DNA of 35,619 nt. Origin: Flavobacteriales bacterium BRH_c54 (GTDB lineage Bacteria > Bacteroidota > Bacteroidia > Flavobacteriales_E > Vicingaceae). The notes under the pieces are model-generated. The model was given only the letters and a program-made list of their open reading frames with translations, had not been told where the DNA came from and searched no databases. Positions within the stretch are counted from its first letter, which is position 1; every line of letters starts with the position of its first letter. The stretch covers positions 1 to 35,619 of the forward strand of contig LADZ01000003.1 of the NCBI GenBank assembly GCA_000961845.1, given 5' to 3'. The translations under genes and the position numbers were made by a program. Below are positions 5,351-35,619 of the stretch, one piece after another.

Positions 5351-7534
5351 TTATTTCACTAACGTCATTTCATCAATAAGATGCTTAGCTCCTGCATATT
5401 TATCAATAATAAATAAAGTATAACGAATATCTACAGAGATAGTACGTTGAATATTTGGTTCGAAATAAATGTCCCCACTCATAGCTTCCCAGTTACCATC
5501 AAATGCAGTTCCTATAAGATGCCCTTTACCATTAATTACCGGACTTCCTGAGTTTCCTCCTGTAATATCATTATTAGATAAAAAACCTACCGGTAATTCG
5601 CCATTTTCATTAGCGTATTGTCCGTAATCTTTTTTGTTATATAGTTCTTTTAATTTCTCAGGCACATAAAACTCATGATTTTTATTGTCTGTTATTACTT
5701 CTTTTTGCATTACTCCTTCTAAAGTTGTACTAAAATGGTAAGTAACCGCATCAGAAGGCTCATAAGACAATACATTTCCATAACTTACTCTCATAGTCGA
5801 GTTAGCATCAGGCGCATATTTTTTATCTTTATTCATTTGTCTAACACCATCAACAAATAATCTCATCCCTTTTGCTTTTTCTTGAGCAATTTGATTTTGA
5901 CCACCACTAATTTGTTGAATATAAATATTAATAAATTCGTTCATTAAGTTATAGATAGGGTCTTTTTGTAGTTTTTTAGCGTTGAATTTAGCTAAATAAT
6001 CTTTCACTCTTTGTTCTGATGTAAAAGGTGATTTTTTAAAATAATCTGCTGCAAACCTATTAAAGTCATTCTTATATTTTTTGGCTATTTCCGTTAATGT
6101 TTCAGGATGAAATTCCTTATCTACATTATTGTAAAACATGGTTAACATTTTAGCCAATAATTTTTGATCTATTTCGGCATTGTAATTTTTAAAATCTCCT
6201 TCTAAATCTTCTAAAATTTGCTTTTTAGCTTCTTCCATTTTTTCTGAACTATTTGCTGTTATGGCAGTCTGCATACTAGAACGGAATGCGAAATTTGACA
6301 TCACATATCCAAAAATATCCGGTCCTTGAAAAACTGCTTCTTGAAAATAAACTTTAGGTAAGGTATATTTTGCTCCTTGCTCGTAAGCATTTTTTACCAA
6401 CTCTAAGGCATTACCATACTTTGCTTTTCTTTCTGTATTTTCATTTGCCCAAGCAATATAGTTAGCTTCTAAAGCTTCTTTCTTTTGTTTTACTTTGTTT
6501 TTTACTAACTGCTGGCTTTGTCCTTTAAAATACTTCCAATAATTACTTGTACTAGCAAATTTAGAAGCGTATTGAATTCTTACCTTTTGATCTTTACTCA
6601 TTCCCTCTTCCATAATATCTAACTTAGCTCTTCTAATTTTAACTCTTTCTGGCTGCTCAACTTTTACAGCTTCATCAACACCATAAGAGGTTAAATACCT
6701 GTCAGTACTTCCAGGATACCCCATAACCATAGCGTAATCGCCATCTTTAATTCCTTCTAAAGAAACAGGTAGATGATGTTTTGGTTGGTATGGTTTGTTT
6801 GTTTCAGCATAGTCAGCAGGCTCATTATTTTCATTAGCATAAACTCTAAATAAGGTAAAATCACCTGTATGTCGAGGCCACATCCAGTTATCAGTATCTC
6901 CACCAAATTTACCAATAGAACTTGGAGGTGCTCCTACTAAACGAACATCATTAAAAATATTATATTTAAACATATAATACTCATTTCCGTGATAAAATGA
7001 TTTAACCTGAACTTTATAAGTTTCTTTATCTTTTCCCTCAGCTTCTTTATCAACCAACGCTTTTATTGCCGCAGAAATGGTTTTACTTCTTTCTGTTTCA
7101 TCCATCTCATCTGTCACATCTTTTAAAACAATAGCTGTTACATCATCCATTCTATCTAAAAACCAAACGCTAAATCCGGCAGGTAATTCTTGTTCTTTAG
7201 TCATAGCCCAAAAACCATCTGTTAAATAATCATGTTCTGTAGAACTTTTTTCTTGAATAACGCCATAACCACAGTGGTGATTTGTAAGCATTAATCCTTG
7301 ATTAGAAATCATTTCTCCTGTACAAAAACCACCTCCAAGAGCCACCACAGCATCTTTTAAAGAAGAATTATTTACCGAGTAGATTTCTTCAGCAGTAAGT
7401 TGTAATCCACAATTTTGCATATCCACATGGTTTAATCTTTCTATAAAAAGAGGTAACCACATTCCTTCATCAGCTTTAACTCTAATCTGAAATAAGGTGA
7501 TGAATGTTAAAAGTAATAAGACTATTTTTTTCAT
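5351..7534 (-). CDS. S46-family dipeptidyl-peptidase, DPP7-like
   Basis: 727 residues with a signal peptide (1-21, ending VKA). The chymotrypsin-like triad of family S46 is visible: His87 in TNHHCGYG, Asp225 in WPRHTGDF, and Ser662 in GGNSGSPV. These periplasmic exopeptidases release N-terminal dipeptides during protein and peptide feeding in Bacteroidota. Eighteen residues after the catalytic Ser lies Gly680 (AFDGNWEA). In DPP11 this position is, to my knowledge, Arg and gives Asp/Glu preference, so Gly favours the DPP7 type that accepts hydrophobic P1 residues. It is the first gene of the operon with yidD and the two TPR genes, separated from efp by a terminator. Confidence 0.93.
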   Translation of the reverse strand: MKKIVLLLLTFITLFQIRVKADEGMWLPLFIERLNHVDMQNCGLQLTAEEIYSVNNSSLKDAVVALGGGFCTGEMISNQGLMLTNHHCGYGVIQEKSSTEHDYLTDGFWAMTKEQELPAGFSVWFLDRMDDVTAIVLKDVTDEMDETERSKTISAAIKALVDKEAEGKDKETYKVQVKSFYHGNEYYMFKYNIFNDVRLVGAPPSSIGKFGGDTDNWMWPRHTGDFTLFRVYANENNEPADYAETNKPYQPKHHLPVSLEGIKDGDYAMVMGYPGSTDRYLTSYGVDEAVKVEQPERVKIRRAKLDIMEEGMSKDQKVRIQYASKFASTSNYWKYFKGQSQQLVKNKVKQKKEALEANYIAWANENTERKAKYGNALELVKNAYEQGAKYTLPKVYFQEAVFQGPDIFGYVMSNFAFRSSMQTAITANSSEKMEEAKKQILEDLEGDFKNYNAEIDQKLLAKMLTMFYNNVDKEFHPETLTEIAKKYKNDFNRFAADYFKKSPFTSEQRVKDYLAKFNAKKLQKDPIYNLMNEFINIYIQQISGGQNQIAQEKAKGMRLFVDGVRQMNKDKKYAPDANSTMRVSYGNVLSYEPSDAVTYHFSTTLEGVMQKEVITDNKNHEFYVPEKLKELYNKKDYGQYANENGELPVGFLSNNDITGGNSGSPVINGKGHLIGTAFDGNWEAMSGDIYFEPNIQRTISVDIRYTLFIIDKYAGAKHLIDEMTLVK

Positions 7535-7550
7535 GAGTTAATTTTTTAAT

Positions 7551-7577
7551 ACAAAAAGGAACAAAATTGTTCCTTTT
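7551..7577 (-). terminator. Terminator after efp
   Basis: Perfect 10-bp inverted repeat AAAAGGAACA (7554-7563) / TGTTCCTTTT (7568-7577) with a 4-base loop. Read on the minus strand, the stem runs into a short T tract (complement of 7553-7557). It lies between the efp stop and the S46 peptidase start, so it ends the lpxD-lpxC-lpxA-efp unit. Confidence 0.7.
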
Positions 7578-7620
7578 CGTTAATTATTAATTTTGATATA
7601 GTTATGATATAATTATTTTC

Positions 7621-8187
7621 TTAAACCTTCACTCTTTCTGAATAAGAGCCATCTGTTGTACTAATCTTTATATGGTCTCCGATATTGATAAATAATGGAA
7701 CTCTAACCTCAGCACCAGTCTCAACAGTTGCCGGCTTAAAAGCATTAGTAGCTGTATTTCCTTTTTCTCCCGGTTCTGTGTAAGTTACCTCTAAAACAAT
7801 AGATGCTGGTAATTCACATAATAAAGGCTTTTCTTCTTCTGCATGAAAAACGATTTCTGCAAAATCACCTTCTTTTAAAAACTGAGGAGCATTAATTAAT
7901 TCTTCAGGGATAAAAGTTTGCTCATATGTTTCATCATTCATAAAATGATACGCATCACCTTCTTTGTATAAGAATTGATATTTTCTTCTTTCAACTCTAA
8001 CTGGTTCAATTTTATGCCCGGCAGAAAAAGTATTATCAATTACTTTTCCTGATGTTAGGTTTTTCAACTTTGTTCTAACAAAAGCCGGTCCTTTACCTGG
8101 CTTTACATGCTGAAATTCAACAATAGTATATAAACTATCATTGTATTTTATGCATAATCCATTTTTAATATCTGCTGTAGTTGCCAT
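7621..8187 (-). CDS. efp: Elongation factor P
   Basis: 188 residues, the usual EF-P length. It begins [17 protein letters not shown], has the KPGKGPAF loop carrying Lys32 (the residue modified in many species), and ends with the OB-fold EF-P C-terminal signature [20 protein letters not shown] binds ribosomes stalled at proline-rich stretches and promotes peptide-bond formation. It follows lpxA by 30 bases on the same strand, an order common in Flavobacteriia, and is closed by a terminator at 7551-7577. The Lys-modifying enzymes are not in this window. Confidence 0.97.
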
Positions 8188-8217
8188 TTATTATTATTTA
8201 ATTATTCCTTATCAAAA

Positions 8218-9000
8218 TTATACAATAGGACCTCTAATAATTCCTTTTGTAGATTCTTCAATAAATTTTAAAATGATATCTTTTTCTTTTGATTTTGGTG
8301 CTTCTTGTTCTATCACTCTAACAGCGTTAGTAACATTTAAACCTCTCACATAAAGTGAACGATAAATATCTTCTATCTGAAGTATTACATCTGTAGAAAA
8401 TCCTCTTCTTCTTAACCCTACAGAATTTACTCCTGCATAAGTTAATGGATCTCTGGCTGCTTTTACATAAGGAGGTACATTTTTTCTAGCATTTGCTCCA
8501 GAGGCAATAAATGCATGCTCTCCAATATGAACAAATTGTTGAACCCCCGCAACTCCTTCAATAATTACAAAATCTCCTAAAACAACATGTCCGGCAAGGT
8601 TTACACAATTTGCCAATATACAATTATCTCCAACTATACAATCGTGAGCTACGTGTACATATGCCATCAATAAACAATTTTTACCTACTACTGTTTTATT
8701 TCTATCTTTTGTACCTCTGTTAATGGTTACACATTCTCTAATGATGGTTCCATCTCCAATCTCGGCAGTAGTATCTTCGTTGTCAAATTTTAAATCTTGA
8801 GGAATTGCTGAAATTACAGCTCCAGGAAAAATCTTACAATTTTTTCCAATTCTTGCTCCACTAAAAATAGTAACATTTGAACCTATCCATGTTCCTTCTC
8901 CTATTTCAACATTATCATATATGGTGGTAAATGGATCTATTTTTACATCATCAGCAATTTTTGCATTAGGATGAATATTTGTCATTGGATATTTTTCCAT
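8218..9000 (-). CDS. lpxA: UDP-N-acetylglucosamine acyltransferase
   Basis: 260 residues. The protein is a left-handed beta-helix built of hexapeptide repeats (IHPNAKIADDVKID, IGEGTWIGSN, IGKNCKIFPG), followed by a C-terminal helical domain. It contains the lpxA-type stretch 'TINRGTKDRNKTVVG' and the HVAHDC segment with the catalytic His. It performs the first step of lipid A synthesis, acyl transfer from acyl-ACP to O3 of UDP-GlcNAc in the cytoplasm. ATG codons occur at 9000 and 8985; the first fits the usual N-terminal length. It lies 44 bases after lpxC-fabZ in the same unit. Confidence 0.96.
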   Translation of the reverse strand: MEKYPMTNIHPNAKIADDVKIDPFTTIYDNVEIGEGTWIGSNVTIFSGARIGKNCKIFPGAVISAIPQDLKFDNEDTTAEIGDGTIIRECVTINRGTKDRNKTVVGKNCLLMAYVHVAHDCIVGDNCILANCVNLAGHVVLGDFVIIEGVAGVQQFVHIGEHAFIASGANARKNVPPYVKAARDPLTYAGVNSVGLRRRGFSTDVILQIEDIYRSLYVRGLNVTNAVRVIEQEAPKSKEKDIILKFIEESTKGIIRGPIV

Positions 9001-9044
9001 TCAATAAATAGTTTTTGTTTTTGCAACAGCGAAATTAGTATTTT

Positions 9045-10463
9045 TTATTGATGTGATGCTACTGTTGCCTTTTCTTCTGTTTTTTCTTTAACAATTTGAG
9101 CCATTAATTCTGCTTCTATTGCTAACTGACCATTAACATATCCTTTACCACTCATGTGAACTATTCCTCTTCTTATAGGGGATAATAATTCCAATTTAAA
9201 AACTAAAGTATCTCCTGGAATTACTTTTCTTTTAAATTTCACACCATCAATTTTCATAAAATAAGTCATGTAATTTTCCGGATCTGGAACTTGACTAAGT
9301 ACTAAAATCCCACCCGCTTGAGCCATCGCCTCAACCTGAAGTACTCCAGGCATTACCGGATTATTTGGGAAATGTCCTGTAAATTGTGGTTCATTCAACG
9401 TAATATTTTTCACCCCAACAATACTACTTTCATCCATTTCAATGATTTTATCAACCAATAAAAACGGGTATCTGTGAGGTAATAGTTTGGCAATTTGATT
9501 GATATCGTAAACAGGCTCTTTTGTTAAATCGAAAAATACATTTCCTTTCTGCTGTTTTTTAATTTCTTGTTTAATAATTTTAGCAAAATCTACATTGCCT
9601 TTATGTCCCGGACGAGCAGCTAAAATATGTCCTTTTATTGGTTTTCCAACTAAAGCTAAATCCCCTATAATATCTAGCAATTTATGTCTTGCAGGTTCAT
9701 TTTGAAAATGGAGTGTTAAGTTATTTAACACTCCTGCTTTATCAACTTTAATATGAGGCTTCCCCAGTAAATCAGCAATTTCATCCAATTTTTCTTGAGG
9801 CAATGGCTTATCTACTAAAACAATTGCATTATCTAAATCTCCACCTTTAATCAAGCCATTTTTTGCCAATACTTCTAATTCTCTTAAAAAAACAAAAGTT
9901 CTGCATTTAGAAATTTCTTCGACAAATTCACCTGCATGATACATATGAGCATGTTGTGTACCTAATATTACAGAATTGTAATCTACCATAACAGTTATCC
10001 TAAACTCATCTTGAGGAACAGCCAACATTTCTGTATGTCTTTCTATGTCTTCATAAGTTAAGTTATCCGTAACAACAAAATAGTCTTTTTCGGCTTCTTG
10101 CTCAACAATACCTACTTGGTTAATCATACTTACAAAAGGAAAAGCACTTCCATCCATAATTGGAACTTCAGGACCATCTAGTTCTATAAGTGCATTATCT
10201 ATTTCCAAACCAAACAAAGCAGCTAAAATATGCTCTGTTGTGTGTACTTTTACTCCATCCTTAGCTAATGTAGTACTTCTGGAAGTATCTACAACCAAAT
10301 TAGCATCGGCCGGAATTATTGGCTGACCTTCTACATCTGTTCTTTTAAATTTAAACCCGTGATTATCGGGTGCTGGATTTACTGTTAATGTTGCTTTTAC
10401 GCCTGTATGTAGTCCTACTCCGACTACTTTAAATGAATCTTTTATTGTTTTTTGTTTTGCCAT
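9045..10463 (-). CDS. lpxC/fabZ: Fused UDP-3-O-acyl-GlcNAc deacetylase / 3-hydroxyacyl-ACP dehydratase
   Basis: 472 residues in one uninterrupted frame. Residues 1-about 305 are LpxC: Glu77-His78 in TTEHILAAL, His260 and Asp264 in HKLLD (zinc ligands with His78), and His287 in ARPGHKGN. Residues about 318-460 are FabZ: LLPHRYPFLLVD, then GHFPNNPVMPGVLQVEAMAQ with catalytic His364 and Glu378. LpxC makes the committed step of lipid A synthesis; FabZ removes water from 3-hydroxyacyl-ACP in fatty acid elongation. Both act on the shared 3-hydroxyacyl-ACP pool, which explains a fusion. The fusion is normal for Bacteroidota, not an assembly artefact. Confidence 0.97.
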   Translation of the reverse strand: MAKQKTIKDSFKVVGVGLHTGVKATLTVNPAPDNHGFKFKRTDVEGQPIIPADANLVVDTSRSTTLAKDGVKVHTTEHILAALFGLEIDNALIELDGPEVPIMDGSAFPFVSMINQVGIVEQEAEKDYFVVTDNLTYEDIERHTEMLAVPQDEFRITVMVDYNSVILGTQHAHMYHAGEFVEEISKCRTFVFLRELEVLAKNGLIKGGDLDNAIVLVDKPLPQEKLDEIADLLGKPHIKVDKAGVLNNLTLHFQNEPARHKLLDIIGDLALVGKPIKGHILAARPGHKGNVDFAKIIKQEIKKQQKGNVFFDLTKEPVYDINQIAKLLPHRYPFLLVDKIIEMDESSIVGVKNITLNEPQFTGHFPNNPVMPGVLQVEAMAQAGGILVLSQVPDPENYMTYFMKIDGVKFKRKVIPGDTLVFKLELLSPIRRGIVHMSGKGYVNGQLAIEAELMAQIVKEKTEEKATVASHQ

Positions 10464-30411: not shown

Positions 30412-32325
30412 ATGAGTAAAATAATAGGAATAGACTTAGGAACAACCAATTCATGTGTTTCTGTAATGGAAGGTAACGAGCCGGTTGTTATCCCTAATGC
30501 TGAAGGAAAAAGAACCACCCCTTCTATCGTTGCTTTTTTAGAAGGCGGAGAAAGAACTGTTGGAGATCCTGCTAAAAGACAAGCTATTACCAACCCAACC
30601 AAAACCATATCTTCTATTAAAAGATTTATGGGAAATTCATTCGACCAAGTAGCTAGCGAAATTAAAAGAGCTTCTTACGAAGTAGTAAAAGGGGAAAATA
30701 ATACGCCAAGAGTAAAAATTGACGACAGATTATATACACCGCAAGAAATTTCAGCAATGGTATTGCAAAAAATGAAAAAAACCGCTGAAGATTACTTAGG
30801 ACAATCTGTTAGTGAGGCAGTAATTACTGTACCTGCATACTTTAACGATGCTCAACGTCAGGCTACCAAAGAAGCCGGAGAAATTGCCGGATTAAAAGTG
30901 AAAAGAATCATTAACGAGCCTACTGCTGCTGCTTTAGCTTACGGTTTAGATAAAAAATCTCAAGACATGAAAATTGTTGTGTTCGACTGTGGTGGTGGAA
31001 CACATGACGTTTCTATTCTTGAATTAGGTGACGGTGTTTTTGAAGTAAAATCTACTGATGGAGATACACACCTTGGTGGTGATGATTTTGACCAAGTAAT
31101 CATTGACTGGTTAGCTGACGAGTTTAATGCTGCTGAAGGAATTGATTTAAGAAATGACCCAATGGCATTACAACGTTTGAAAGAAGCTGCTGAGAAAGCT
31201 AAAGTAGAACTTTCCAGCACCAGCTCAACAGAAATTAACTTACCATACGTTACCGCAACTGCTTCAGGACCTAAACACTTGGTAAAAACTTTATCGAGAG
31301 CTAAGTTTGAGCAATTGGCAGACGAATTAATTAAAAGAACTATTGAGCCATGTAAAACTGCCCTAAAAAGTGCAGGATACAGTGCAAAAGACATCAACGA
31401 AGTAATTTTAGTTGGTGGTTCTACCAGAATCCCTGCTATACAAGAAGCAGTAAAATCATTCTTCGGAAAAGAGCCTTCTAAAGGAGTAAATCCTGATGAA
31501 GTGGTTGCTATTGGTGCAGCCATTCAAGGTGGTGTATTAACCGGAGAAGTTAAAGATGTATTGTTGTTGGATGTTACTCCCCTATCGTTGGGTATTGAAA
31601 CCATGGGTGGTGTAATGACTAAATTAATTGAAGCCAACACTACTATCCCAACTAAAAAATCGGAGACTTTCTCTACAGCATCTGACAACCAACCAGCGGT
31701 AGATATCCATGTATTACAAGGAGAAAGACCAATGGCTGCTGACAACAAATCGTTAGGAAGATTTCAATTGACTGACATTCCACCGGCACCAAGAGGCGTA
31801 CCTCAAATTGAAGTAACCTTTGATATTGATGCCAACGGAATTATGAATATTTCTGCTAAAGATAAAGCTACGGGTAAAGAGCAAAGCATTAGAATTGAAG
31901 CTTCTTCCGGATTAAGTGAAGAAGAAATTGCAAGAATGAAGCGTGAAGCAGAAGAAAATGCTGATGCAGATAAAAAAGCAAAAGAAACTGCTGAAACCAT
32001 GAACCAAGCAGATAGCTTAATCTTCCAAACAGAAAAACAATTGAAAGATTATGGCGACAAATTGCCGGCTGACAAAAAGCAACCTATTGAAGATGCTTTA
32101 GCTGAACTGAAAAAAGCACACGAAGCAAAAGATGTTGACGCTTGTAAAGCAGGAATTGAAAAACTAAACACTGTTTTCCAAGCTGCTTCTCAAGAGATGT
32201 ATAATGCTCAACAACAAGCAGGAGGTGCTGAAGGTGCTGGAAATACTTCTGGTGAAAATGGTAGCGATGAAGTTACCGATGTTGACTTTGAAGAAGTAAC
32301 TGACGCTGACGATAACAACAAGTAA
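30412..32325 (+). CDS. dnaK: Molecular chaperone DnaK (Hsp70)
   Basis: 637 residues, full length. The N-terminal ATPase has [18 protein letters not shown], '[16 protein letters not shown]', a phosphate-2 loop, and [14 protein letters not shown]. The interdomain linker reads [15 protein letters not shown], followed by the peptide-binding domain and a C-terminal acidic [11 protein letters not shown] tail. DnaK binds and refolds exposed hydrophobic segments with DnaJ and GrpE, neither of which is in this window. The phosphate-2 loop reads FDCGGGTHD (191-199) where E. coli has DLGGGTFD; Thr197 is kept. It has its own promoter and a strong terminator and appears monocistronic. Confidence 0.99.
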
Positions 32326-32350
32326 TTTTTTATAGTAAATAGTTAACCTA

Positions 32351-32384
32351 AAATCCCTGTTAAGCAATTAGCAGGGATTTTTTT
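32351..32384 (+). terminator. Rho-independent terminator of dnaK
   Basis: AAATCCCTGTTAA (32351-32363) pairs with TTAGCAGGGATTT (32368-32380) around a GCAA loop, with one G-U pair, and runs into a T7 tract (32378-32384). A textbook terminator that insulates the NACHT gene from dnaK transcription. Confidence 0.9.
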
Positions 32385-32578: not shown

Positions 32579-35557
32579 ATGAACTTAAAACCAAACGTCT
32601 ATAGCAGCTCTCAGTTCAACTTGAATGAATTACCATCAGATAGAAGATTTGAAGAACTAGTTTGTAGAATATTCGAAAACAGAATTATTGATGATTTAAC
32701 CGGACAATATGATCATGTGCACTTAATGCCGGGAGTGGCAGAAAAGGGAATTGATATTCATCTGAAAAAATCCGGTAAGAACGAAGCTGCAATTCAATGT
32801 AAAATGAAAACCTCTGGAAATATAAATAAACCAGAGGCTACAAAAGAGATTCTTAAGTTTGTACTTCATTATTATCAGGATAAAGATTTAATTCACAACT
32901 TGAATACCTTCAAATATTACTTTGTTACATCTGGTAAATTTGCTTCAACAACAATAAAACTCTTAGGGGATTTTAATTCCGAAATTTTTAAAGAAACAAA
33001 ACTCCAAGAATGGGTTGAAGAAGTAATAAAGAGTTATGTTGCTTTTAAAAATTTAAATTATGCGAAAATAAAAAAAGAGCTAGAACAAATTCTTGCAATT
33101 TTAAAAGTTGAACCAGTCAACTACAATAACATTAATGGATGGCTAAATAAATATGAAAATACTGGTATTGTTAATGAATTCTTTTCAATAAAAAAAGTTG
33201 TGGACAACTCTTCTATTGACAAACTTATTGATTCCATTAGTCCAGACATAGATAAGGATGCTGAGATACTAATCAAGTCTTACTATTTATCAGCTAAAAA
33301 TCATCTTGATGTTGTCAAGTTTATCGGACACGATATATCAGTAGGAAACCGCCCAAGAAATATAACAGTTTCCAAATTATACGTTGACCCATTTTTTACC
33401 GTAAACAAAAACATAAAAACTGATGATAAGTTACTTGAAGAATTTAAAAATAGAAAAAAGCGTGAATTAAGAATACATGATGTATTTAAACGTTCTAAAC
33501 ATTTTGTAATTTTAGGCGATCCTGGTTCAGGGAAATCCCTAATGGTAAAAAATCTCATTTTAAGATTCATCAAAAAAAGTGCAAATATTGGGGGATTAAA
33601 AAATTATAAAAATCATATCCCTTTTAGAATTGAACTAAGAAAATATAATGAGCAACGTCAGAAGGGGAATATAAATATTATTAACTACTTAGCATCGATA
33701 CTAAAAACTGAATATCAATTAAACAGTGTCGATGAAAAAATTTTACTACATATAATTCAAAATAAATCGACACTGTTTTTCTTTGATGGTTTAGACGAGA
33801 TATTTGATATTGCTCAGAAGAATGAAGTTAGAGATGACATTCTTAGTTTTCTCTCAGTTAACAAAAGTGTAAAATGTATTGTTACTTCTCGATTTATTGG
33901 ATATCATGATACACAGTTTCCAGAAAATAGTTTTTATGAATTTTCCATTCAGGATTTCAACAATAAACAGATAGACAAATTTATTGAGAAATTTTATACA
34001 TCACAGATTAGAAACAAGAACGAAAGAACAAAAGAAATTGAAAGTTGTAAACGTCAAATAGGTGAAATTGATAATGATTTAAAAAGCAATCCATTAATTT
34101 TATCACTAATGAGCCTATTGGCAATCAATAAAGTTGTAATACCTGATTCTAGATTAGATGTATATCGATCTTGTACAAATACACTTGTAGAAACAAGAGA
34201 CAAAGAAGAAAAACAACTTGACATAGAATTATTGGTTAAAAACAAGAGGGGAACCTTTGGGCGACTTGCATTCTGGCAATATAATCAAACAACGAACAAG
34301 AAACCTGTTAACCAACGACTTGTCATTAAAGACATTGCAAAATATCTCGTTGAACGAAAAGAATTTGATGACATCCTTGAGGCTGAAGATGCAAGCACTC
34401 ACTTTATGGCATATGCTGAAAGAAGGTCAATATATTTTGACAATAATTTCACTCATAAAACATTTTTAGAATATTATACTGCTAGTCATATTTTTACTCG
34501 ATACCATAACAATTATAAGAAACACACCGAAAGAGATGCAATAATAGAAAATAATATAAAAAATCCAGCATGGCATGTAGTCTTTGAGTTACTCATAGCA
34601 ATGATAGATGAGAATCTTGACGAATCTGAAATTATGGACGAGATAATAGAAAAACAGCTAATAAAAGATAGTATTGAAATAGTATATTTTTTTCTAAGTA
34701 TTCTCAAGCAAACAAAAAACATTAATGATAATACACGAGCTGAAATAATCGAAAATGCCATTATTTTAACATTGGATGGTAAGGATATCAAACAAAAGAA
34801 AAATAGAACTTATAATGGTTCTAATGGTTTTATTTCTCTTTTAAATAAATTATCTCTTTGTTCCAACCATAAAAACATAATTCAAACAGTCCTTAATAAA
34901 TTGGAAGATAAACTGGATAGCGATTCTAAAAAAGTAGATTTCTATGTGTTCTTATTTGAATTAAATCACATGATAGATAGAAGACAAAATAAAGGAAATA
35001 CATTTAAGGCAAAGAAAGAAGAAGAATTAATTCGAGTAAAAGATTTAAACCTTCTACTCTTTACTAACTACTATTTAAAATCCTTTGACCAAATAGATTT
35101 CCAAAAATTCATATCTGAACAAATCAGACTTTTTGGTTTAAAAAGTATTAATGAAGAAATACCTTTTAAATATCATCGAGGTACTAGCAGAGTTGCTACA
35201 TTCGAAATTTATATTAACCACAAAAGTACTTTAAACACATATGAAAGTATTAAAAAAGACCTCAAATTTTTAACGCCATTAGGTATTGACGTACCTTTTT
35301 TACAATCTGCCACCCCATCATTCTGGAGCTATGATTATGTTTCTGAACACGAGCCTAATAAGTTCAAAAACTTAATAGACATAATGATTTCTAATTCTAA
35401 TAAATTAGTTTCGGATTTCATTACTTATCTATTGTCTACAATTAGTATTAGTAAAATAAAACTTGTTGCAGCTGAACACAAGAATAATAAAAAATTTATT
35501 AAAATGATAGATACAATTACAGCGATAAAGAAAAAAACGAGTGCTAACAAAGTGTAA
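32579..35557 (+). CDS. Mrr-like nuclease / NACHT NTPase protein, candidate antiphage STAND (NLR-like) system
   Basis: 992 residues, no signal peptide. Residues about 20-155 form a PD-(D/E)XK domain of Mrr type: FEELVCRIF (Glu26), GIDIHL (Asp59), then AIQCK (Gln73, Lys75). A helical linker follows (155-300). The NACHT core has Walker A GDPGSGKS (313-320), Walker B LFFFDGLDEI (399-408), sensor-type IVTSRFIGY (434-442), the NPL segment (504-506) and FTHKTFLEYYTA (624-635) of the winged-helix region. The remaining residues to 992 are helical and match no repeat I can name; this should be the sensor part. In known bNACHT and Avs proteins a phage component triggers oligomerisation and nuclease activity, killing the infected cell. 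That role here is inferred from architecture. It stands alone behind the dnaK terminator with its own promoter. Confidence 0.9.
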   Translation: MNLKPNVYSSSQFNLNELPSDRRFEELVCRIFENRIIDDLTGQYDHVHLMPGVAEKGIDIHLKKSGKNEAAIQCKMKTSGNINKPEATKEILKFVLHYYQDKDLIHNLNTFKYYFVTSGKFASTTIKLLGDFNSEIFKETKLQEWVEEVIKSYVAFKNLNYAKIKKELEQILAILKVEPVNYNNINGWLNKYENTGIVNEFFSIKKVVDNSSIDKLIDSISPDIDKDAEILIKSYYLSAKNHLDVVKFIGHDISVGNRPRNITVSKLYVDPFFTVNKNIKTDDKLLEEFKNRKKRELRIHDVFKRSKHFVILGDPGSGKSLMVKNLILRFIKKSANIGGLKNYKNHIPFRIELRKYNEQRQKGNINIINYLASILKTEYQLNSVDEKILLHIIQNKSTLFFFDGLDEIFDIAQKNEVRDDILSFLSVNKSVKCIVTSRFIGYHDTQFPENSFYEFSIQDFNNKQIDKFIEKFYTSQIRNKNERTKEIESCKRQIGEIDNDLKSNPLILSLMSLLAINKVVIPDSRLDVYRSCTNTLVETRDKEEKQLDIELLVKNKRGTFGRLAFWQYNQTTNKKPVNQRLVIKDIAKYLVERKEFDDILEAEDASTHFMAYAERRSIYFDNNFTHKTFLEYYTASHIFTRYHNNYKKHTERDAIIENNIKNPAWHVVFELLIAMIDENLDESEIMDEIIEKQLIKDSIEIVYFFLSILKQTKNINDNTRAEIIENAIILTLDGKDIKQKKNRTYNGSNGFISLLNKLSLCSNHKNIIQTVLNKLEDKLDSDSKKVDFYVFLFELNHMIDRRQNKGNTFKAKKEEELIRVKDLNLLLFTNYYLKSFDQIDFQKFISEQIRLFGLKSINEEIPFKYHRGTSRVATFEIYINHKSTLNTYESIKKDLKFLTPLGIDVPFLQSATPSFWSYDYVSEHEPNKFKNLIDIMISNSNKLVSDFITYLLSTISISKIKLVAAEHKNNKKFIKMIDTITAIKKKTSANKV

Positions 35558-35580
35558 ATTTAATAGCTGCCCCCCCGCTG

Positions 35581-35602
35581 CCGCAAGCGTCCACGCTTGT
35601 GG
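35581..35602. repeat. GC-rich REP-like hairpin after the NACHT gene
   Basis: CCGCAAGCGT (35581-35590) pairs with ACGCTTGTGG (35593-35602) around a CC loop, with one G-U pair: a 10-bp stem. It sits in a GC-rich patch with a C7 run (35570-35576) and GCTGCC twice (35566, 35577), unlike the AT-rich surroundings. No T tract follows, so it is not a normal terminator. It may be a dispersed palindromic element; copy number cannot be seen here. Confidence 0.55.
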
Positions 35603-35619
35603 TAAAGTGATAAATAATA

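What the first reader, a model, noticed from the sequence alone, without database searches (positions are those of the whole stretch)
32579..35557. Candidate antiphage protein: Mrr-like nuclease fused to a NACHT NTPase with an unassigned C-terminal sensor
The order nuclease (Glu26, Asp59, Gln73-x-Lys75) - NACHT (Walker A 313-320, Walker B 399-408, FTHKTFLEYYTA 624-635) - long helical C-terminus is that of bacterial NLR-like defence proteins (bNACHT, Avs). It is one gene, without an obvious partner in the window, and sits in an accessory position between the dnaK terminator and a REP-like hairpin. The C-terminal 350 residues match no repeat I can name, so its trigger may be new.
Basis: partly seen in the sequence, partly recalled or inferred. 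Interest (0 to 1): 0.75.

Follow-up and report, generated by a model that had tools for sequence, protein, structure and literature searches.

The report
Nuclease–NACHT bacterial immune receptor gene
A single intact bacterial gene encodes a DNA-cutting domain joined to an ATP-driven switch like those of human inflammasome receptors and a fast-changing helical tail, most likely an anti-phage alarm that destroys DNA when triggered; it is a new member of a known kind.

Summary
Window 32579-35557 (+) is one intact 992-codon ORF. Pfam Mrr_cat (21-104) and NACHT (310-473) pass their cut-offs. A model of residues 1-241 (pLDDT 86) has the PD-(D/E)XK core and resembles LmuA, MspJI, Avs4 and Cap4 nucleases. 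The middle, from about 223 to 713-808, resembles NOD2, NLRP3 and NLRC4. Correction: the invariant acidic residue is Glu25, not Glu26. The unassigned tail (roughly 235 residues, not 350) diverges fastest: 25% identity to the closest relative against 60% elsewhere.

Both ends swap partners. Five relatives pair this NACHT, and a distantly similar tail, with another N-terminus. The nuclease module heads two other kinds of protein, some on viral contigs. In two congeners the slot behind dnaK holds other genes; one matches a candidate-defence profile. dnaK is absent from the flanks held of six relatives, so its adjacency is probably a site effect.

Best reading: a nuclease-effector bNACHT protein. 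The tail senses infection, NACHT oligomerises, the nuclease cuts DNA. Activity is untested. Similar architectures are in print: a new member of a known kind, with an unnamed sensor.

The parts
32579..35557 (+). 992-aa ORF: PD-(D/E)XK nuclease - NACHT - helical C-terminus
32636..33229 (+). nuclease module, residues 20-217 (PD-(D/E)XK core 21-117 plus a mostly helical part), shared with non-NACHT proteins
   Evidence: Pfam Mrr_cat above cut-off; model pLDDT 86, H21-38 E46-49 E60-64 E67-75 H84-100 E112-117; fold matches; relatives
32651..32653 (+).
   Evidence: alignments A7 and A8
32753..32803 (+). Asp59 ... Gln73-Cys74-Lys75 catalytic signature
   Evidence: invariant in A7 and A8; positions
33485..33997 (+). 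NACHT nucleotide-binding domain, residues 303-473; Walker A 313-320, FFFDGLDE 400-407
   Evidence: Pfam NACHT 310-473, 36.9 bits; positions
33998..34849 (+). NACHT-associated helical/winged-helix region, residues 474 to about 757 (end uncertain, 713-808), with FTHKTFLEYYTA 624-635
   Evidence: model aligned to NOD2, NLRP3 and NLRC4
34850..35554 (+). helical C-terminal region, residues about 758-992, presumed sensor; no named family found
   Evidence: helical, uneven confidence; fastest diverging; distant similarity to C-termini of five relatives
30412..32325 (+). dnaK, left neighbour (not part of the system)
   Evidence: Pfam HSP70 883.7 bits; in 6 of 6 genomes of the genus searched
32350..32381 (+). 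terminator-like hairpin after dnaK
   Evidence: 1 found; shuffles mean 0.8, so not significant by count
35580..35603 (.). REP-like hairpin at the contig end
   Evidence: the last 50 nt of this contig equal the reversed end of contig C62

Best explanation
This is a single-gene bacterial NLR-related (bNACHT/STAND) defence protein with a PD-(D/E)XK nuclease effector. Shown: the gene is intact and has three parts, the nuclease residues and Walker motifs are conserved in relatives, each end is found with other partners in related proteins, the tail diverges fastest, and the gene sits in a slot whose content differs between congeners. Inferred: at rest the C-terminal region and ADP-bound NACHT hold the protein inactive. 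Infection, sensed directly or through a host process, releases the NACHT module, which binds ATP and oligomerises. That brings N-terminal nucleases together, and they cut phage and host DNA, stopping the phage at the cost of the cell.
For: Both Pfam domains pass their cut-offs. The nuclease model has the expected core and resembles defence nucleases: LmuA Z 10.2 over 160 residues at 3.7 A, Avs4 Z 8.9 over 138 at 3.7 A, Cap4 Z 8.2 over 169 at 4.1 A. The NACHT region matches NOD2 at Z 20.0 over 406 residues at 7.1 A, with NLRP3 (19.8) and NLRC4 (18.5) close behind. The nearest relative (L009) keeps the whole architecture at 50% identity over 1-986. Five relatives keep NACHT and a distantly similar tail with another N-terminal domain. 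The nuclease module heads a 1517-aa ATPase protein that matches PADLOC PDC-M54A (45.7 bits) and a roughly 490-aa protein in a P2-like phage contig. Residues 741-992 are 59/234 identical to L009 against 436/732 for residues 1-740. PMC12169576 (abstract, introduction, discussion and passages read) reports that bNACHT25 and bNACHT32, also PD-(D/E)XK-NACHT proteins, need a nuclease active-site residue for defence and that infection of cells carrying them leads to DNA degradation.
Against: No activity data were found for this protein or its relatives. Mrr_cat is passed only narrowly (22.6 vs 21 bits); the closest relative L009 does not list it at E <= 0.1, and L064 and L065 do not reach its cut-off. 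Foldseek gave the nuclease model no PDB match at E <= 0.001. The full-length model is of moderate quality (mean pLDDT 62.5), so the tail's fold is uncertain. The gene is rare: 3 of 395 phylum genomes matched at E <= 1e-40, itself included. No dense defence island was seen; of the window's other ORFs only four were scanned with Pfam. Fast change of the tail could also mean loose constraint.
Confidence: 0.82

Rival explanations
1. A chaperone guard: like bNACHT25 it senses infection through DnaK/DnaJ, and its place beside dnaK reflects that function.
For: PMC12169576 reports that bNACHT25, a PD-(D/E)XK-NACHT protein, needs DnaJ, and that mutations disrupting the DnaJ-DnaK interaction disrupt its defence. 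This gene directly follows dnaK.
Against: dnaK is in 0 of 6 loci of relatives, in flanks of 7.7-17.8 kb (L011 is a short contig). The same slot behind dnaK in two congeners carries other genes. Adjacency therefore looks like a site effect. A DnaJ-dependent trigger without linkage is not excluded.
Confidence: 0.1
2. A restriction-type enzyme: the nuclease reads modified or foreign DNA itself and the NTPase drives it, as in modification-dependent restriction.
For: The nuclease model matches the modification-dependent enzymes MspJI (Z 10.1) and AspBHI (Z 8.7), and FokI (Z 8.5); Pfam names it Mrr_cat.
Against: The NTPase is NACHT with NLR-like flanking domains, a switch rather than a translocase. 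No DNA-reading domain passed its Pfam cut-off. The one methyltransferase among the four window ORFs scanned is PrmC-like and lies three ORFs left of dnaK.
Confidence: 0.06
3. A STAND regulator with a non-immune role, in which the nuclease domain is inactive or used for signalling.
For: STAND proteins also include transcriptional regulators (recalled).
Against: E25, D59, Q73 and K75 are invariant across seven distinct modules. The module also sits in a P2-like phage contig, and the gene was found in 0 of 5 congeners.
Confidence: 0.05

Closest known systems
bNACHT25 / bNACHT32 (bNACHT clade 6)
   Same: N-terminal PD-(D/E)XK nuclease, central NACHT, C-terminal helical region (PMC12169576, passages)
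   Different: Those two carry an NCH1 C-terminal domain; no C-terminal family was found in our protein by Pfam at E <= 1. Not compared by sequence: their sequences were not to hand.
Mrr_cat-STAND proteins of P4-like satellite hotspots (PMC9122126, passages)
   Same: Mrr_cat nuclease ahead of a STAND NTPase with a C-terminal region
   Different: Those are in E. coli P4-like satellites and are described with C-terminal repeats; not compared by sequence here
Avs3 / Avs4
   Same: PD-(D/E)XK nuclease ahead of a STAND ATPase (recalled); nuclease fold similarity Avs4 Z 8.9, Avs3 Z 7.4
   Different: Much larger (chain lengths 1534 and 2028); P0001 matched no Avs profile in PADLOC at E <= 1
Lamassu LmuA and CBASS Cap4 nucleases
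   Same: Effector fold: Z 10.2 and 8.2
   Different: Those work with other partners (SMC-type LmuB; SAVED domain and cyclic nucleotide; recalled); here the switch is a NACHT in the same chain
EruA (NCBIfam NF058535)
   Same: NACHT region similarity, 39.6 bits
   Different: Curated cut-off is 1000 bits; not a member
Mammalian NOD2, NLRP3, NLRC4
   Same: NACHT plus following helical/winged-helix domains, best Z 20.0, 19.8 and 18.5 at rmsd 7-8 A
   Different: Other effector domains; no leucine-rich repeat family was found here by Pfam

Membership tests
bNACHT (bacterial NACHT-module proteins) | NACHT domain above the curated cut-off | tested here: met
   36.9 bits vs 26.7
bNACHT (bacterial NACHT-module proteins) | Tripartite effector - NACHT - C-terminal region | tested here: met
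bNACHT (bacterial NACHT-module proteins) | Protection against phage | not testable with these tools
   needs plaque assays
bNACHT clade 6 (bNACHT25-like) | PD-(D/E)XK effector | tested here: met
bNACHT clade 6 (bNACHT25-like) | NCH1 C-terminal domain | tested here: inconclusive
   No NCH-named family at E <= 1; that this Pfam copy holds an NCH1 model was not confirmed (the one accession tried from recall was another family)
bNACHT clade 6 (bNACHT25-like) | Placement with bNACHT25 in a tree | not tested
PD-(D/E)XK nucleases (Mrr_cat) | Profile match above cut-off | tested here: met
   22.6 and 26.5 bits vs 21 for this protein; its closest relative L009 does not list the family at E <= 0.1
PD-(D/E)XK nucleases (Mrr_cat) | alpha-beta-beta-beta-alpha-beta core with conserved Glu, Asp, Q-x-K | tested here: met
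   model; invariant residues
PD-(D/E)XK nucleases (Mrr_cat) | DNA cleavage | not testable with these tools
   needs a nuclease assay
Avs (AVAST) | Match to Avs profiles | tested here: inconclusive
   Only mad8 at 20 bits in PADLOC; presence of Avs models in PADLOC recalled, not checked
Avs (AVAST) | Large C-terminal sensor for a phage protein such as terminase or portal | not tested
   the tail was not folded or searched alone
Lamassu (LmuA) | LmuB-type SMC partner next to the nuclease | tested here: inconclusive
   Left neighbour is dnaK, right neighbour across the inferred contig join a Y1_Tnp ORF; the rest of the genome was not searched
EruA | NCBIfam equivalog cut-off | tested here: not met
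   39.6 bits vs 1000

The most novel reading that the evidence does not exclude
Residues about 758-992 are a sensor family without a described counterpart, which tells this NACHT protein of a phage product or host disturbance not yet known as a trigger. The nuclease module (residues ~20-217) is an exchangeable effector cassette that bacteria and phages have fitted to at least three chassis: NACHT, an AAA-type STAND protein, and a ~490-aa protein without a recognised NTPase. The NACHT-sensor chassis in turn accepts a second, unassigned N-terminal effector.
Probability: 0.4. Interest if true: 0.6.

Novelty: new member of a known kind. Interest (0 to 1): 0.38.

Why it matters
PMC12169576 calls the stimuli of bNACHT proteins challenging to discover (introduction). 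This family offers a natural swap experiment: one NACHT-sensor chassis with two different N-termini, and one nuclease module on three chassis. That lets effector and sensor roles be separated at the bench. It also adds a nuclease-NACHT protein in a slot behind dnaK whose content differs between genomes of one genus.

Tried and rejected
dnaK adjacency as a functional link: lowered. dnaK is in 0 of 6 relative loci (L009, L010, L011, L012, L046, L002), and two congeners carry other genes in the slot.

The search for related loci with the single protein gave nothing confirmed from 36 stretches. In viral contigs the NACHT-tail alignment gave none of 600 stretches, while the nuclease alignment gave 4 of 87. 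In plasmids the whole protein matched 54 records, none over 80% of the query, and the nuclease module 2 records. The phage collection gave one weak NACHT match, and the E. coli 488-aa nuclease protein had no match there.

PDB sequence searches at E <= 1 or 0.01: 0 for the whole protein, 0 for the NACHT-tail profile, 5 rows for the nuclease profile (best E 0.024) and 3 for the tail profile (best E 0.062), none of them named as a nuclease or an immune receptor. The first structure model has a badly predicted N-terminus (block means 26-47 over residues 1-220); three of its five rows carry another N-terminal domain. It was not used for the nuclease.

PF22722 was tried from recall as a possible NCH1 accession and proved to be NA-iREase1, with no match in the own genome. 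PADLOC mad8 (20 bits) is taken as general NTPase similarity. GC content (0.284; 26 other window ORFs mean 0.318, sd 0.038) does not mark the gene as foreign. Paper searches for EruA (0 papers) and for REP transposases (nothing usable) did not help, nor did one on Cap4/Avs terms (0 papers). PMC7159879 (passages) mentions Mrr-like and NACHT domains as parts of other conflict systems. Kibby et al. 2023 is not held (DOI recalled) and is known here only through PMC12169576.

The 153-aa right-hand neighbour looked GreA-like by eye, but Pfam gives no family at E <= 0.001, so it is left unnamed.
Full report
OBSERVATION. The window is the whole of contig C58, one of 69 in its genome. The ORF at 32579-35557 (+) runs unbroken for 992 codons from an ATG. 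Pfam places Mrr_cat at 21-104 (22.6 bits, cut-off 21) and NACHT at 310-473 (36.9 bits, cut-off 26.7).

EFFECTOR. Scanned alone, residues 1-241 score 26.5 bits for Mrr_cat, and 3 of the 5 members of alignment A8 match that family at E <= 1. Against this, the whole L009 protein does not list Mrr_cat at E <= 0.1, and of L064 and L065 only the latter shows it, at 13.5 bits, below the cut-off. A model of residues 1-241 built on the five sequences of A8 has mean pLDDT 86 and the order helix 21-38, strand 46-49, strand 60-64, strand 67-75, helix 84-100, strand 112-117, the PD-(D/E)XK core. A second look at Foldseek's matches gives AF1548 (Z 10.6, 114 residues, 2.3 A), Lamassu LmuA (10.2, 160, 3.7 A), MspJI (10.1, 141, 3.5 A), Avs4 (8.9, 138, 3.7 A), FokI (8.5, 142, 4.3 A), Cap4 (8.2, 169, 4.1 A) and Avs3 (7.4, 158, 4.0 A). 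Foldseek itself gave no match at E <= 0.001; the best was MspJI at 7.5e-3. Several of these Z values lie near the level that the tool warns can be background, but the leading rows are mostly enzymes that I know as PD-(D/E)XK nucleases. In alignments A7 and A8, which overlap and hold seven distinct proteins, E25, D59, Q73, C74 and K75 are invariant and position 26 is not.

SWITCH. In the full-length model (mean pLDDT 62.5, pTM 0.45; better over much of 300-730) the region from about 223 aligns with NOD2 (Z 20.0, 406 residues, 7.1 A), NLRP3 (19.8, 410, 7.9 A) and NLRC4 (18.5, 437, 8.2 A), ending between about 713 and 808 by row. The rmsd values are large, as expected when whole multi-domain chains are laid over each other. 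Taking 757 as the border, about 235 residues remain unassigned. The model makes them mostly helical with uneven confidence.

RELATIVES OF THE WHOLE PROTEIN. One close relative was found: L009, a Saprospiraceae MAG, 50% identical over residues 1-986, with nuclease module, NACHT and tail. Five more (L010 Leeuwenhoekiella, L011 Chitinophagaceae, L012 Dyadobacter, L044/L046 from genome G326, L002 Ilyobacter plasmid) match by BLASTP only from residue 233 or later, up to between 742 and 902. Their N-termini are different; for the four of them scanned, Pfam names nothing there above its cut-off (L002; L010, L011 and L012). A tree of the NACHT region from 13 proteins groups these seven at 99/99 support, with P0001 and L009 together at 99/96 and the other five together at 92/93. 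The tool warns that long branches meet in that tree, this seven-member group with the Streptomyces-Gloeocapsa pair included. The simplest account is one exchange of the N-terminal effector. The tails of the two groups are distantly similar: profile comparison of residues 761-992 gives probability 55 and E 1.2e-4 over 142 columns.

WHERE IT CHANGES. Between P0001 and L009, identity is 64% over 1-135, 46% over 136-240, 63% over 241-302, 69% over 303-473, 65% over 474-640, then 39%, 24% and 26% over 641-760, 761-880 and 881-992. For 1-740 against 741-992 it is 436/732 against 59/234 (Fisher p 2e-20; neighbouring sites are not independent). Fast change at the sensing end is what an arms race predicts, though looser constraint would look the same.

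THE NUCLEASE MODULE TRAVELS. Residues ~20-217 are also found at the head of (i) a 1517-aa protein in G717 that matches PADLOC PDC-M54A at 45.7 bits and Pfam AAA, and a 1526-aa protein in viral contig L068, also with AAA, beside a recombinase-like ORF (the recombinase read by eye); (ii) proteins of about 490-500 aa in an E. coli plasmid record with phage baseplate genes (L064), in an Agrobacterium plasmid (L065), and in viral contigs L069, L070 and L071. For L064 and L065 Pfam finds no NTPase; the others of this kind were not scanned with Pfam. In L071 the ORF lies between a phage baseplate-V gene and a P2 GpR gene, with one 149-aa ORF before the latter. L064, L065 and another NACHT protein (L014) match PADLOC LmuA weakly over the N-terminal part (15.3, 16 and 18 bits). 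In the phylum sample the module was found in 2 of 395 genomes, the own one and G717.

GENOMIC PLACE. The last 50 nt of C58 equal the reversed end of contig C62, and C62 carries a 153-aa ORF near that end. Likely order in this genome: dnaK, this gene, hairpin, a 181-aa Y1_Tnp transposase ORF with further hairpins, ORFs of 171 and 165 aa, the 153-aa ORF. The join is inferred from the overlap and the congeners; a repeat lies at the break. In congener G002 the slot between dnaK and the 153-aa ORF holds a 335-aa ORF that matches PADLOC PDC-M14A (60.6 bits, over residues 14-166) and a hairpin 97.8% identical over 45 nt. In G004 it holds ORFs of 252 and 263 aa, with no Pfam family above its cut-off, and a DinB-like ORF, with two hairpins. 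G005 has a different ORF right of dnaK. G001's stretch was fetched but its ORFs were not listed, and for G003 only a short locus at a contig end was returned and not read. None of these five congeners has this gene at E <= 1e-5 (their completeness is 87-99%). Ilyobacter's NACHT gene is followed by an ORF matching PADLOC PDC-S49 at 88.1 bits. These are candidate-defence labels, not tested functions.

RARITY. Matches: 1 of 100 relatives (itself, E <= 1e-5); 2 of 395 in the class (itself and G326, E <= 1e-30); 3 of 395 in the phylum (itself, G326, and a partial, stop-containing match in G453, E <= 1e-40). The samples overlap, and a first-look filter limits what is scored.

MECHANISM. Shown: anatomy, conservation, exchange of partners at both ends and a variable location. 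Inferred from the bNACHT and STAND families: the tail senses, NACHT exchanges nucleotide and oligomerises, nucleases are brought together and DNA is cut. PMC12169576 (abstract, introduction, discussion and passages read) reports for bNACHT25 and bNACHT32 that a nuclease active-site residue is needed for defence and that infection leads to DNA degradation, and for bNACHT25 that DnaJ is needed. The dnaK neighbour invites that comparison, but dnaK is in none of six relative loci, so adjacency is no evidence for it.

NOVELTY. Mrr_cat-STAND proteins are already mentioned in PMC9122126 (passages read) and PD-(D/E)XK-NACHT proteins in PMC12169576. A full-text search for 'Mrr_cat' with 'NACHT' in the held library gave only PMC9122126. 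This is a new member of a known kind. What is unnamed, as far as Pfam, NCBIfam, PADLOC and PHROGs show, is the tail; the second N-terminal domain of its relatives has no Pfam name above cut-off.

Noticed in passing
L010:6980-10729: In Leeuwenhoekiella the related NACHT gene (7413-10244) sits alone between two copies (297 nt, 88% identical) of the 3' end of a host gene, as if the insertion carried a substitute gene end.
   Followed up: partly
L053:5089-6096 (congener G002, slot behind dnaK): A 335-aa ORF matching PADLOC candidate-defence family PDC-M14A occupies the slot that holds the NACHT gene here.
   Followed up: partly
window 35568-35619 and L045:6740-7607: REP-like hairpins surround a Y1_Tnp transposase ORF; contigs C58 and C62 both end in this repeat, which probably broke the assembly.
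   Followed up: yes
L071:5884-7398: A P2-like phage contig carries a nuclease-module protein on the opposite strand between its baseplate V gene and tail-completion genes, a possible phage-borne defence gene.
   Followed up: partly
L068:5956-10536: A viral contig carries a 1526-aa nuclease plus AAA-type protein next to a recombinase-like ORF.
   Followed up: partly
L002:8195-9970: The ORF after the Ilyobacter NACHT gene matches PADLOC PDC-S49 (88.1 bits).
   Followed up: no
L014:7251-10682 (Ktedonospora): A more distant NACHT protein also has an N-terminus with weak LmuA-nuclease similarity (18 bits), suggesting nuclease-NACHT fusions in another phylum.
   Followed up: no
window 32579-35557, residues 300-796: The NACHT region matches phrog_18297, a phage protein family of unknown function (34.5 bits).
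   Followed up: no
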